A stretch of 64,000 nucleotides of DNA from Embleya hyalina (lineage in GTDB: Bacteria > Actinomycetota > Actinomycetes > Streptomycetales > Streptomycetaceae). Under the pieces are notes generated by a model, which was given only the letters and a program-made list of their open reading frames with translations, had not been told where the DNA came from and made no database searches. Numbering within the stretch: the stretch's first letter is position 1; the number at the start of each line of letters is the position of its first letter. The stretch spans positions 350,881 to 414,880 of the forward strand of contig NZ_BIFH01000016.1 in NCBI RefSeq assembly GCF_003967355.1, in the 5' to 3' direction. Shown here in pieces: positions 58,232 through 61,601 of this stretch. Made by a program: the position numbers and the translations under genes.

Positions 58232-59329
58232 TCAGTACATGCCGCGCATCGCCGTCCGGACCTCGCGCAACGTCTCGTCGGCCACCGCGTTCGCCCGCTC
58301 GTTGCCGGCCCGCAACACACGCCGGACCCGCTCGGGATCGCGCGCGTATTCGGTGCGCCGGGCCCGGATCGGGGCCAGGAACTCGTTCACCGCCTCGGTG
58401 ACGGTCCGCTTCAGCGCGGCGGCTCCCGCGGCGCCGATCTCGTCGGCCACCGCGTGCGGGTCGCGCTCCTGGCACAGCGCGGCCAACAGCACCAGGCCCG
58501 CCACCCCGGGCCGGGCGACGGGGTCGTAGGTGATGTGCCGGTCGGCGTCGGTCCGGGCCGCGCGGATCAGCCGGGCCGTCTCGTCCGCGCTCGCCCCCAA
58601 CGGGATCGCGTTGCCCCGGCTCTTGCTCATCTTGGAGCCGTCGGTGCCGAGCAGCAGCGGCGCGGCCGACAGCAGCGCGTCGGGCACCGGGAAGACCGGC
58701 GAACCGCCCGTCGGGTAGCGCTCGTTGAACCGGCGGGCGATGGTCCGGGTGAGTTCGACGTGCGGCAACTGGTCCTGGCCGACCGGGACCAGATTGCCCT
58801 TGCAGAACAGGATGTCGGCGGCCTGATGGGCGGGGTAGGTGAACATCAGCCCGCTGACCGCGGCCTGCCGCGAGTGCGCGATCTCGTCCTTGACCGTCGG
58901 ATTGCGGTTCAGCTCGGCGACCGAGACCAGGCTGAGGAACGGCAGCAACAACTGGTTCAGCGCCGGGATCGCGCTGTGCGTGAAGATGGTGGTGCGGTCG
59001 GGGTCGATCCCGACCGCCAGGTAGTCGAGCACCAGGCCCTCGACGTATTCGACCAGGCGCTCGGCGACGTCGCGGTCGGTCAGTACCTGGTAGTCGGCGA
59101 TGATGAGGAATCCCTCGACGCCGAGATCCTGGAGCCGCACGCGGTTGTGCAGGGTGCCGAAGTAGTGCCCGAGGTGCAGGGGGCCGGTCGGCCGGTCGCC
59201 GGTGAGCACCCGAAACCGCCCGGGCTTGTACCGGATCCGCTCCTCGAGTTCGGCGCTCCGCAGCCGCGCGGCGGAGGTACCGATGGCGTCGGTCGCGGCG
59301 GTCGTGGTGATATCGAGCAGGTCGTTCAT
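58232..59329 (-). CDS. trpS: Tryptophanyl-tRNA synthetase, attenuator-controlled
   Basis: 365 residues. Class I synthetase with HLGH at 52-55 and KMSKS near 233-237 (SKMSKSRGN), GTDGSKM, and FLIIADYQVLTDRD of the Trp/Tyr branch. Charges tRNA-Trp. An open frame extends upstream to 59545, but the upstream part is the attenuator leader; ATG 59329 is the first sound start. The leader is the arrangement I recall for the auxiliary, indolmycin-resistant TrpRS of Streptomyces coelicolor, induced when Trp-tRNA becomes scarce. Whether this is the auxiliary or only TrpRS cannot be seen. Confidence 0.93.
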   Translation of the reverse strand: MNDLLDITTTAATDAIGTSAARLRSAELEERIRYKPGRFRVLTGDRPTGPLHLGHYFGTLHNRVRLQDLGVEGFLIIADYQVLTDRDVAERLVEYVEGLVLDYLAVGIDPDRTTIFTHSAIPALNQLLLPFLSLVSVAELNRNPTVKDEIAHSRQAAVSGLMFTYPAHQAADILFCKGNLVPVGQDQLPHVELTRTIARRFNERYPTGGSPVFPVPDALLSAAPLLLGTDGSKMSKSRGNAIPLGASADETARLIRAARTDADRHITYDPVARPGVAGLVLLAALCQERDPHAVADEIGAAGAAALKRTVTEAVNEFLAPIRARRTEYARDPERVRRVLRAGNERANAVADETLREVRTAMRGMY

Positions 59330-59402
59330 GATCCGTCTCCCGGTGGGTGGTCGGTGAGCCGCCGCCGGAACGACACCCGCCCGCCTCCCGCTTCGGGACA
59401 CG

Positions 59403-59430
59403 AAAAAAGGGCCGTCCGTACGAACGACCC
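59403..59430 (-). terminator. Trp attenuator: terminator with alternative antiterminator pairing
   Basis: On the minus strand GGGTCGTTCG (59430-59421) pairs with CGGACGGCCC (59418-59409), with U-G pairs, followed by six T (59408-59403): an intrinsic terminator. The competing helix joins GGAGCGACC (59458-59450) with GGTCGTTC in the terminator's 5' arm. GGAGCG can alternatively pair with CGCTCC (59469-59464), completing the classic 1:2, 2:3, 3:4 scheme. Confidence 0.88.
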
Positions 59431-59457
59431 CGGTCAGGCCCGAATGGGCGGTCGCTC

Positions 59458-59499
59458 CTATGTGGAGCGCCACCAACTCGTACCCGATACACGATGCAT
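59458..59499 (-). CDS. Trp leader peptide MHRVSGTSWWRST
   Basis: 13 residues with two adjacent Trp codons (TGG TGG) five codons before the TAG. A ribosome stalling there when Trp-tRNA is scarce would sequester CGCTCC and free region 2 to form the antiterminator, allowing trpS transcription. TATGCT (59511-59506) lies 6 nt before the ATG, so this peptide itself is probably translated from a leaderless mRNA 5' end. Confidence 0.85.
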   Translation of the reverse strand: MHRVSGTSWWRST

Positions 59500-59641
59500 A
59501 CCCCGAGCATAACGCGCCGCCGGCGGTGGAGCACAGCGGACGCAAGACGAGCCCGACGGGTCGCGGGAGTCCGGGTGCGCGGGATCGGGGAGTGAACAGC
59601 CGGCCCCGACCCCCAATGCGCGGGCCGGGGCTGACACTGTG

Positions 59642-60751
59642 TCAGGTGATCGACGCCGGTCCGATCTCCACTCGGCCGTTCGGCCCTTCGAGCCACGTCG
59701 ATCGACCGTCACGGGTCACGGTGACCCCGTGTTGTTCGCGCGTGGGCTCGCCCTGGCCGAGCCACGCTTCGTACGCGGCCTCGATCTCCGCCCACAGATC
59801 ACGTGGTCCGTGCTCGCTCACCTCGAACGAGTCCGCACCCGGTTTGTAGTCGATGGCCGCCCATGACTTCCCATCCGAGTACCAGACCGTGAACTCGTCG
59901 GCCCTGTCGGCTCGTCCGAAGAACGTGCGTTGCTCGACATCGGGCAACCGCAACCCGATCGCGAAGTCCGCGTGTTCCCGCCGCAGGGGACGTGGGTCCG
60001 TCAGGGTGTGTCTTACCCGTGCCGTCTCCGGGTCCGGGATGACGTCACCCACGAACGGCCGACCGTCGAACGCCGAGCGCTGCGAGCGGGCCCACATGAA
60101 GTTGACGTTTCCCACGAAGCGACCGCTCGCCGTGCCGCTGCCATCCACGCACAGGCGTAGCAGTCCGCTGACGTTGTACGAGTTCCCCCAGGGTGTGACG
60201 ATCACCCCGCCGGGCTTCACTTGCTCCACCCACGCGTAGGGCACGTGTCGGACGGCCATGGTGGCGATCAGTCTGTCGTAGGGTGCACCGGGCTCGTGTC
60301 CTTCGAGACCGTCCCCGACGACCATGGTCGGCACGGTCCGGCAGCGCTCGCGCAAGACCTTGTGAGCGGCGCCCGCGACCTGTTCGTCGATCTCGATCGT
60401 GATCATGCTCCCTTCGGTCAGCGCGGCGGACAAGAGCGCGCTTGACCATCCGGTTCCCGTACCGAGTTCGAGCACGTGGTGATTCGGGCGGACGTCGAGT
60501 TGCTCGAGCATGAGCCGAACAAGGGACGGCATCGATGCGGACGACGTGGGGATCATGTCGCCGCTGTCGGTGCCGTCGTCCATTTGGATGACAAGAGGCA
60601 CGTCCGCCTCCACGGCGGCCGCCCATGCGTCCGGGTCCGTGTCGCGATTGATCAGCTCGTCGTCGACTCCCCACACGACGGCGGGAATGTACAGGCGACG
60701 GGGCGTGTCCTCGAAAACGTGATCCCAGAAGGGGCCGGGGCGACCCGTCAC
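59642..60751 (-). CDS. PIMT-like (protein L-isoaspartate) methyltransferase, RiPP-maturation type
   Basis: 369 residues. The SAM motif LELGTGTG lies at 94-101, preceded by SSASMPSLVRLML as in protein-isoaspartate methyltransferases, and IEIDEQVAGAA forms motif II. After the methyltransferase core an extra C-terminal domain of about 150 residues (from GNVNFMWAR) marks the group that methylates Asp in ribosomal peptides (lanthipeptide, graspetide and imiditide clusters). GTG 60751 overlaps the stop of the upstream 42-residue peptide (GTGA), and GGAAAAGG is its ribosome site; an in-frame GTG at 60808 would lie deep in the peptide gene. Likely methylates an Asp of that peptide, giving aspartimide after cyclisation. 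Confidence 0.85.
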   Translation of the reverse strand: MTGRPGPFWDHVFEDTPRRLYIPAVVWGVDDELINRDTDPDAWAAAVEADVPLVIQMDDGTDSGDMIPTSSASMPSLVRLMLEQLDVRPNHHVLELGTGTGWSSALLSAALTEGSMITIEIDEQVAGAAHKVLRERCRTVPTMVVGDGLEGHEPGAPYDRLIATMAVRHVPYAWVEQVKPGGVIVTPWGNSYNVSGLLRLCVDGSGTASGRFVGNVNFMWARSQRSAFDGRPFVGDVIPDPETARVRHTLTDPRPLRREHADFAIGLRLPDVEQRTFFGRADRADEFTVWYSDGKSWAAIDYKPGADSFEVSEHGPRDLWAEIEAAYEAWLGQGEPTREQHGVTVTRDGRSTWLEGPNGRVEIGPASIT

Positions 60752-60876
60752 TTGTCCTTTTCCGGGTTCGTAGGGTCGTTCGTCGGGATCGGCTTGTCCT
60801 TCGGCCACTGCCCATCCCGCTGCCTTTGCGGAGTCTTGTCGTCCCCGTCCTTGTCGGGCTTGCCGTGCTCAGGCAT
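60748..60876 (-). CDS. Small charged peptide, probable RiPP precursor (imiditide-type)
   Basis: 42 residues, starting MPEHGKPDKDG and ending NDPTNPEKDK; about two in five residues are Asp, Glu, Lys or Arg and there is no Cys. It contains Asp-Gly at DKDGDDK and at RDGQWP, the dipeptide most prone to aspartimide formation, and a single Trp. GGGAGG stands before ATG 60876. Its stop overlaps the methyltransferase start, so the pair is translationally coupled. This matches the two-gene arrangement of imiditides, whose PIMT-like enzyme modifies an Asp of a small precursor. The product is inferred. Confidence 0.72.
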   Translation of the reverse strand: MPEHGKPDKDGDDKTPQRQRDGQWPKDKPIPTNDPTNPEKDK

Positions 60877-61238
60877 CGTCGAGCCTCCCGAATTGTCGAA
60901 TGGATGTCCATTGTGCGTGCGTACATCCGGTGTGTGGTCACGAACACCCATATGGGGTATGAACTTCCGCTTCGGCCGTGCGGGGCAGGTAGTGTTCGAC
61001 CAACTGTGCACGGAGGTTGTCGACTTGCCCTCCGTGGACGGCTGATGGAGTGGATCGGGTAGCGCGCCGCGGTACGGACCTCCTCGACGGTCCCGCGCGG
61101 CTTGGCGCGGCGGAATCGCGTTCGGGATTTCGATCCGACATTCTGTGCGCCGGGATGTCGAGAACGGTCGGCGGGCTCCGACCCGGATACGAGCGGCCCG
61201 CAGGGGCCGGACGCAGCGGACGCACGAGGAGCGAAGTC
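60877..61238. other. Promoter region between the peptide gene and the YCII-sigma operon
   Basis: No further gene. The left part (60890-61010) is clearly lower in GC than the window average and contains the expected minus-strand promoter area of the peptide gene; the right part holds the ECF-type promoter at 61156. Confidence 0.55.
61156..61183 (+). promoter_or_regulatory. ECF42-type promoter, copy 1
   Basis: TGTCGA (61156-61161), 17 bp, CGAC (61179-61182). The surrounding GATGTCGAGAACG and GCTCCGACC are repeated exactly at 62877-62906. This matches the TGTCGA/CGA promoter type known for ECF42 sigma factors. Confidence 0.85.
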
Positions 61239-61601
61239 ATGAAGTTCATGTTGCTGATCTACAACCGCCCCGGTTTCGTGGAGGAGCTTTCCGAGGCCGA
61301 GCGCACCGAGCTGTTCGGCGAGGTCGACGCGATCATGGCCGAGCTGACCGCGTCCGGTGAACTGCTCGGCGGCGAGGCGCTCGCCGACCCGGCGCAGACC
61401 AGGACGGTCCGGGTGCGGGACGGGGTGCCGGCGGTCACCGACGGCCCGTTCATGGAGGCCAAGGAGCACTTCGCGGGGTATCTCCTCGTCGAATGCGAGA
61501 GCACCGAGCGGGCCACCGACATCGCCGCCCGCTGGCCGGACGCCAGGCGGTGGGCGATGGAGGTGCGGCCGGTGATGTCCGAGTCGGGGACGGAGATGTG
61601 A
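61239..61601 (+). CDS. YCII-related (DGPF domain) protein
   Basis: 120 residues. KFMLLIYNRPGF start and TDGPFMEAKEHFAGYLLVE carry the Asp-Gly-Pro-Phe signature that names the family. Proteins of this type are encoded next to ECF42 sigma factors; their biochemical role is not settled. GAGGAG precedes ATG 61239. Its stop overlaps the sigma factor start (GTGA), so both are produced together from the ECF-type promoter at 61156. Confidence 0.9.
   Translation: MKFMLLIYNRPGFVEELSEAERTELFGEVDAIMAELTASGELLGGEALADPAQTRTVRVRDGVPAVTDGPFMEAKEHFAGYLLVECESTERATDIAARWPDARRWAMEVRPVMSESGTEM

What the first reader, a model, noticed from the sequence alone, without database searches (positions are those of the whole stretch)
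59642..60876. Two-gene imiditide-like RiPP module: charged 42-residue peptide coupled to a PIMT-like methyltransferase
A 42-residue peptide with no Cys, rich in Asp/Lys, with two Asp-Gly sites overlaps by GTGA a stand-alone PIMT homologue that has the extra C-terminal domain seen in peptide-maturing members. Nothing else biosynthetic (no lanthipeptide synthase, ATP-grasp ligase or protease) is near. This is the minimal layout of aspartimide-forming RiPPs. The peptide's own sequence is not one I recognise, so it may be a new subtype; best target Asp is in RDGQWP.
Basis: partly seen in the sequence, partly recalled or inferred. Interest (0 to 1): 0.88.

Follow-up and report, generated by a model that had tools for sequence, protein, structure and literature searches.

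The report
Two-gene imiditide (type I pamtide) module
A tiny gene pair encodes a 42-residue peptide and an enzyme predicted to rearrange one aspartate in it; it belongs to a recently described natural-product class, and its relatives point to the likely residue and, for the class, to a possible regulatory partner.

Summary
At 60748-60876(-) a 42-aa peptide gene overlaps by GTGA a 369-aa PIMT homologue, 59642-60751(-). The enzyme has the class features: PCMT domain, GxGxG, extra C-terminal domain (AlphaFold pLDDT 94.6; best PDB match 1DL5) and WxxxGxP. Coupling is not chance: a precursor profile found 39 places in 34 of 394 family genomes, and 30 of 30 fetched places (19 of 19 outside the training set) have a PIMT homologue alongside. 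Asp21-Gly22 (RDGQW) is present in 15 of 15 precursors beside enzymes of the supported clade; Asp10 is not conserved, so Asp21 is the predicted site. I could not check whether this DGQW subgroup is already listed. Two additions: the genome carries nine such modules (this one included, one frame-broken), and in some family genomes PIMT-homologue loci lie near XRE-DUF5753 regulators far above chance (16 of 61 within 2 kb in six genomes, about 1 expected), though in this genome 0 of 14 do. That link is published for graspetides; I did not find it for imiditides.

The parts
60748..60876 (-). Precursor peptide gene, 42 aa + stop (ATG start), imiditide/type I pamtide precursor of the DGQW subgroup
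60884..60889 (-). GGGAGG ribosome-binding site of the precursor gene
   Evidence: sequence; GGGAGG also precedes the precursor in L002, L023, L024, L026 and L045, not in L025
60814..60816 (-). Codon of Asp21 (RDGQW), predicted modified residue
   Evidence: Asp21-Gly22 in 15 of 15 precursors beside clade enzymes and in 16 of 16 aligned (these were picked by a DGQ/DGR pattern)
60847..60849 (-). Codon of Asp10, the other Asp-Gly site, not conserved
   Evidence: Asp in 9 of 16
60748..60751 (-). GTGA overlap of precursor stop and methyltransferase start
   Evidence: present in 9 of 9 nearest loci (window included), absent in the 7 other DGQW loci
59642..60751 (-). PIMT-homologous peptide L-aspartyl O-methyltransferase (PAMT), 369 aa + stop
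60449..60463 (-). GxGxG SAM-binding motif (GTGTG, residues 97-101)
   Evidence: G97 and G101 invariant, G99 nearly, in 57 aligned homologues
59678..60034 (-). Extra C-terminal domain (about residues 240-358)
   Evidence: AlphaFold model; Foldseek best match 1DL5 over 355 columns
59744..59764 (-). WxxxGxP motif (WLGQGEP, residues 330-336)
   Evidence: W330, G334, P336 nearly invariant in 57 homologues; motif named in PMC13001092

Best explanation
A two-gene imiditide (type I pamtide) module. The peptide is made first; translation re-starts at the overlapping GTG, giving enzyme in step with substrate. The methyltransferase, using SAM, binds the linear charged peptide through its C-terminal domain and methylates the side chain of Asp21 in RDGQW. 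The ester cyclises onto the Gly22 amide to an aspartimide, which persists or opens to isoaspartate and aspartate. Shown here: gene layout, family, motifs, fold prediction, coupling, conservation of Asp21-Gly22. Inferred from characterised relatives (NmaA/NmaM, SpaA/SpaM): methylation, aspartimide, isoAsp, binding by the C-terminal domain. Inferred from layout: translational coupling. Not known: leader removal, export, biological role.
For: Enzyme family and motifs; model mean pLDDT 94.6 with an extra C-terminal domain; Foldseek top hit T. maritima PIMT 1DL5, E 2.5e-18, the solved structure the literature names for this clade. Precursor beside enzyme in 30 of 30 fetched places, 19 of 19 outside training. 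Asp21-Gly22 in 15 of 15 precursors of the enzyme clade; the four sister-group precursors have exactly one Asp-Gly each. DGQW-type enzymes form a clade, 99/93: 14 labelled rows, L065 (its peptide also reads KQSPKESDGQW but my rule missed it) and orphan L029. Between the window peptide and its six genus relatives pS exceeds pN in 6 of 6 pairs (0.38-0.62 against 0.13-0.30). Published biochemistry of the class.
Against: No chemistry tested. TIGR04188 score is under its curated cut-off. The 1DL5 match is modest as a whole (TM 0.52/0.60, rmsd 7.6, 18% identity). 20 of 64 homologue loci lack a strict precursor, including a 67% relative, L029, with none seen upstream. L059 pairs a DGQW peptide with an enzyme outside the clade. 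The 16 aligned precursors were picked by a DGQ/DGR pattern, so their 16 of 16 is partly by construction; the 15 of 15 by clade is the fairer count. Over all 21 genus pairs pN exceeds pS in 2 (L002-L026, L024-L026). The class review speaks of strong positive charge; this peptide is near neutral (9 K/R, 10 D/E).
Confidence: 0.87

Rival explanations
1. Same module, but Asp10 (KDGD) or Asp12, not Asp21, is modified, or more than one Asp is.
For: Gly11 and Asp12 are kept in 15 of 16 aligned precursors, and Asp10 is Asp in 9 of 16. Several non-genus members carry a further Asp-Gly in HGDGK. Three imiditides of the genus have their Asp-Gly near residue 11 (L030, L031, L035), though there with a shorter leader.
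Against: Asp21-Gly22 is the only Asp-Gly pair shared by all 15 clade precursors, and L065 has no other. Asp12 is followed by a varied residue (Lys, Gly, Ser, Asp, Ala, Arg or Glu). In NmaA the first 20 residues can be removed with some modification left (review).
Confidence: 0.08
2. The peptide is a graspetide precursor acted on in trans by an ATP-grasp ligase elsewhere in the genome, the methyltransferase being a secondary tailoring enzyme.
For: Best NCBIfam model is the graspetide-system methyltransferase TIGR04188; three homologue loci of this genome lie downstream of what look like ATP-grasp genes (L018-L020, recognised by eye, no profile run).
Against: No ATP-grasp domain in the window ORFs scanned. 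The enzymes I labelled graspetide-type group apart, 98/95, from the DGQW clade. Ring-forming Thr/Ser residues are not conserved: the Thr15 column is Q in 9 of 16.
Confidence: 0.03
3. The methyltransferase is an ordinary isoAsp repair enzyme and the peptide a translational leader (uORF) or a binding partner that is not modified.
For: PIMT fold; 4-nt overlap suits a coupling leader.
Against: Peptide sequence is conserved with a constant Asp-Gly in the middle; C-terminal domain and WxxxGxP are the published marks of the peptide-modifying clade; 14 homologues in one genome do not fit a single repair enzyme.
Confidence: 0.03

Closest known systems
Imiditides / type I pamtides (NmaA/NmaM of Nonomuraea maritima; SpaA/SpaM of Streptomyces sparsogenes)
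   Same: Two genes; linear Cys-free ~45-aa precursor rich in Gly/Pro/Asp/Lys with a conserved Asp; PIMT homologue with extra C-terminal domain and WxxxGxP.
   Different: Precursor of a DGQW subgroup whose relation to NmaA/SpaA I could not test (I did not see their sequences in the sections read; they are in figures); near-neutral charge; GTGA overlap.
Cysimiditides / type II pamtides (FcaA/FcaM)
   Same: Two-gene logic and the same enzyme family.
   Different: Those precursors have CxxCxGxG zinc motifs; this one has no Cys.
Graspimiditides, group 13 graspetides (TIGR04188 methyltransferase)
   Same: Homologous methyltransferase; XRE-DUF5753 neighbours are reported there and found here for part of the imiditide loci.
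   Different: No ATP-grasp ligase found here; enzymes fall in another clade.
Thermotoga maritima PIMT, PDB 1DL5
   Same: Best fold match, with a C-terminal extension.
   Different: 18% identity, TM 0.52-0.60 in the Foldseek alignment.

Membership tests
Imiditide / type I pamtide | Two-gene cluster of short precursor and PIMT homologue without another primary RiPP enzyme | tested here: met
   (34 of 47 window ORFs scanned); co-occurrence
Imiditide / type I pamtide | Enzyme with C-terminal domain of over 100 aa and WxxxGxP | tested here: met
Imiditide / type I pamtide | Precursor about 45 aa, Gly/Pro/Asp/Lys-rich, no zinc-binding Cys motif, highly conserved Asp near Gly/Pro | tested here: met
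   42 aa, no Cys; Asp21-Gly22 in 15 of 15 clade precursors
Imiditide / type I pamtide | Conserved charged termini recognised by the enzyme | tested here: inconclusive
   Tail is K/D-rich in the genus, ends KK in several others, and varies in length; recognition untested
Imiditide / type I pamtide | Asp methylation, aspartimide, isoAsp in the precursor | not testable with these tools
   needs co-expression and mass spectrometry
Cysimiditide / type II pamtide | Two CxxCxGxG motifs around the Asp | tested here: not met
   no Cys in the peptide
Graspetide group 13 | ATP-grasp ligase in the cluster | tested here: not met
TIGR04188 (graspetide-system methyltransferase) | Score at or above the curated cut-off of 380 bits | tested here: not met
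   278.3 bits

The most novel reading that the evidence does not exclude
Imiditides and their kin are not secreted antibiotics but intracellular, slowly maturing signals that act on WhiJ-like XRE-DUF5753 regulators of actinomycete development or antibiotic production: the Asp to aspartimide to isoAsp change would serve as a timer on the ligand. Basis: 16 of 61 homologue loci in six genomes lie within 2 kb of a DUF5753 gene, about 1 expected, and in the DGQW subgroup four loci have a DUF6879 + HTH/DUF5753 gene pair as the next genes upstream on the same strand. Against: 0 of 14 in this genome, and the window copy's nearest DUF5753 gene is about 62 kb off, so there the partner would act in trans.
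Probability: 0.1. Interest if true: 0.75.

Novelty: new member of a known kind. Interest (0 to 1): 0.38.

Why it matters
As a member it adds a clean case with the target residue suggested by comparison. The wider value is the setting: one genome with nine imiditide-type modules, and in part of the family a strong neighbourhood link to XRE-DUF5753 regulators. The class review names biological function as the bigger challenge, and this link makes one function directly testable by deletion and reporter assays in a laboratory Streptomyces.

Tried and rejected
Rfam on the whole window and on 59200-61300: nothing. Sigma-70 promoter scan of 59300-61300: none. The genome-contig scan by the enzyme gave two loci, both Embleya scabrispora. 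The plasmid record of Embleya sp. NBC_00888 has no listed genes under the match. Synteny: among flanking ORFs of five genus loci the only homology besides the module is to a second methyltransferase homologue in L046, and no window neighbour has a relative among the flanking ORFs of the 16 other loci at E 1e-8, so it looks like a free two-gene cassette. Membrane action by positive charge, suggested for the class, fits this near-neutral peptide poorly. The codon comparison is weak evidence alone: at most 43 codons per pair.

The DUF5753 test covers 47 homologue loci of five genomes, with graspetide, type I, type II and a few partial PIMT-only matches together. Within 5 kb by genome: G020 9/14, G030 5/9, G017 3/5, G002 1/9, G029 1/10. 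Hand-added totals: 16 of 61 within 2 kb (about 1.0 expected), 20 of 61 within 3 kb (about 1.4), 21 of 61 within 5 kb (about 2.1). The expectation assumes evenly spread genes of 1 kb. Peptides for the near loci were read by a loose score only.

Tree labels came from a pattern and by eye, after seeing the peptides; 63 rows; nine duplicate loci and L022 left out. Flank survey: 94 of 132 called flanking ORFs of 17 loci were scanned, and the answer prints only the 25 commonest families. Homologue counts are lower bounds for genomes where only 32 candidates were scored; G000, G002, G017, G020, G029 and G030 were fully scored.

Not followed: 20 loci (L088-L107) and L086, L087 were fetched and not analysed.

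Full report
What is there. On the minus strand, 60748-60876 encodes a 42-residue peptide with an ATG and a GGGAGG site, and its stop overlaps by GTGA the GTG of a 369-residue methyltransferase, 59642-60751. The longer frame from 60808 that an ORF lister gives (388 aa) would overlap the peptide by 61 bases. The GTG of the overlap is present in 9 of 9 nearest loci (window included), while 3 of these 9 have no in-frame start within 90 bases upstream of it (L023, L025, L045), so I take the overlap start.

Enzyme. PF01135 E 3e-25; NCBIfam best TIGR04188 at 278 bits, under its cut-off of 380, ahead of the PIMT models. A profile of 58 homologues matches solved PIMTs (1JG1, 2YXE, 3LBF, 1DL5). The AlphaFold model (57-row alignment, mean pLDDT 94.6, pTM 0.92) has a C-terminal domain from about residue 240. 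Foldseek ranks 1DL5 first and aligns it over 355 columns (TM 0.52/0.60, rmsd 7.6), while the PIMTs ranked next align over 151-238. Across 57 homologues G97, G101, S71 and others are invariant, and W330, G334 and P336 nearly so: the WxxxGxP motif of peptide-modifying members, as named in the review PMC13001092 (sections read: imiditides, homologues, conclusion).

Precursor family. Upstream of many methyltransferase homologues of this genome and its relatives lies a short peptide of one style: His near the start, Asp-Gly inside, K/R-rich end. A strict detector finds one for 44 of 64 loci and for 1 of 75 control ORFs, that one being an imiditide methyltransferase's own ORF. The 20 misses include the graspetide-type loci, L022, precursors that other calls do show (for example L006, L049, L050, L065) and blanks such as L029. 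The window peptide belongs to a subgroup reading about GD-x-K-(T/Q)-x-x-(R/K)-x-x-DGQW. A profile of 13 such precursors found 39 places in 34 of 394 family genomes (9 of 17 genera). The 30 places fetched all carry a methyltransferase homologue within 1.5 kb, 19 of 19 among those not used in the profile. Nine of the 39 were not fetched.

Target residue. In 16 aligned DGQW precursors Asp21 and Gly22 are invariant, Gln23 15/16 and Trp24 13/16; Asp10 of the other Asp-Gly site is Asp in 9 of 16. Those 16 were picked by a DGQ/DGR pattern. Counted instead by enzyme clade, 15 of 15 precursors have it (the sixteenth enzyme, L029, has no precursor), and the four sister-group precursors have exactly one Asp-Gly each. 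Non-genus members also have an Asp-Gly in HGDGK, which the genus lacks; L065, with an altered N-terminus, has only the one in DGQW.

Phylogeny. In a tree of 63 enzymes the DGQW type forms a clade (99/93) of 16 rows: 14 labelled DGQW, L065 whose peptide is also DGQW, and L029, a genus relative whose upstream region shows no precursor. L059 has a DGQW peptide but a long-branch enzyme elsewhere. Four enzymes labelled graspetide-type by eye and L021 group separately (98/95), where the program warns of joined long branches. The deepest splits are weak (67/80).

Genome setting. The genome (12.05 Mb, 78 contigs) has 14 homologues at E 1e-25 or better, equal highest with G020 among 61 family genomes (some counts are lower bounds). 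Of the 14: nine, the window's own included, have an imiditide-type precursor (one of these, L016, frame-broken), three follow what looks like an ATP-grasp gene (by eye), two have neither. One of the nine, 73% identical, lies about 65 kb to the left on the same contig, outside the window, with peptide MAEHGKPGNDGDGKTPHRDKDGQWPKDKPIPSSDPTDPKDKDK. The genus is probably Embleya: close relatives in named records are Embleya scabrispora and Embleya sp. NBC_00888; the genome itself is unnamed.

Neighbours. Around the window pair lie a tryptophanyl-tRNA synthetase, an MFS transporter, an MMPL protein, an ECF sigma factor with a YCII gene, a RibD-like reductase and a glyoxalase. None has a relative among the flanking ORFs of the 16 other loci compared. 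In those 17 loci, HTH_31, DUF5753 and DUF6879 are the commonest neighbours (9, 7 and 5 of 94 flanking proteins scanned). In L076, L077, L078 and L079 a DUF6879 and an HTH/DUF5753 gene are the next called genes upstream on the same strand. The pair is 46-59% alike among L076, L078 and L079 and about 26-33% to that of L077; the first three share no other flanking gene. Genome-wide in five genomes, 16 of 47 homologue loci lie within 2 kb of a DUF5753 gene (expected 0.79; 0 of 100000 simulations reach it) and 19 of 47 within 5 kb (expected 1.71). In this genome 0 of 14 lie within 2 kb and 2 of 14 within 3 kb, and the only DUF5753 gene on the window's contig is at 348182-348721, about 62 kb from the window module. 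So the link is strong in some family genomes (G020, G030, G017) and weak in the genus. Several of the near loci are type I modules and two are type II (L117, L118) by their peptides. The literature reports DUF5753/XRE neighbours for graspetides (PMC8939145 and PMC13097080, passages). The main texts of PMC10787088 and PMC13001092 contain no 'XRE', 'DUF' or 'regulator', and searches for 'imiditide', 'pamtide' and 'DUF5753' listed no paper under both sets of terms; that is all I can say about its being unreported.

Mechanism. By homology to NmaA/NmaM and SpaA/SpaM: SAM-dependent methylation of Asp21, loss of methanol to an aspartimide with Gly22, hydrolysis to isoAsp/Asp. Asp-Gly aspartimides form and open readily (general knowledge), so isoAsp may be the lasting form. 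This is inference. Role, processing and export are unknown; no transporter or peptidase gene is part of the pair.

Verdict. A real, ordinary member of a known, recently described class, with the target residue supported by comparison. What stays interesting is the DUF5753 association in part of the family and the number of modules in one genome.

Noticed in passing
window 58235-59344 (-) with leader 59458-59499 (-) and terminator 59408-59431 (-): A second tryptophanyl-tRNA synthetase (the genome has two trpS matches) preceded by a short frame MHRVSGTSWWRST with tandem Trp and a terminator-like hairpin: looks like a tryptophan attenuator of the kind I recall for Streptomyces trpRS1.
   Followed up: partly
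L009 (C16:344605-345690), left of the window: Close paralogue of the whole module (enzyme 73%), with an HTH/DUF5753 regulator about 2.5 kb away.
   Followed up: partly
L046:3298-5291: In Embleya scabrispora a radical-SAM gene and a second PIMT homologue (388 aa) lie just upstream of the imiditide pair. The rSAM-PAMT pair is a published arrangement without a known substrate; this neighbour peptide could be a candidate.
   Followed up: no
L029 (G001:C158): A 67% relative of the enzyme with no precursor seen upstream and an alignment starting at residue 22: orphan or remnant.
   Followed up: partly
L016 (G000:C31, about 77.4-78.6 kb): Precursor reads partly in one frame and partly in another; looks frame-broken.
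   Followed up: no
L059 (G029:C34): DGQW precursor paired with an enzyme outside the DGQW clade on a long branch: possible re-pairing or tree artefact.
   Followed up: no
L117, L118: Precursors with CxxCxGxG motifs (type II pamtide style) next to methyltransferase homologues and near DUF5753 genes.
   Followed up: partly
G000:C31: Four of the genome's 14 homologue loci lie on one 229-kb contig.
   Followed up: no
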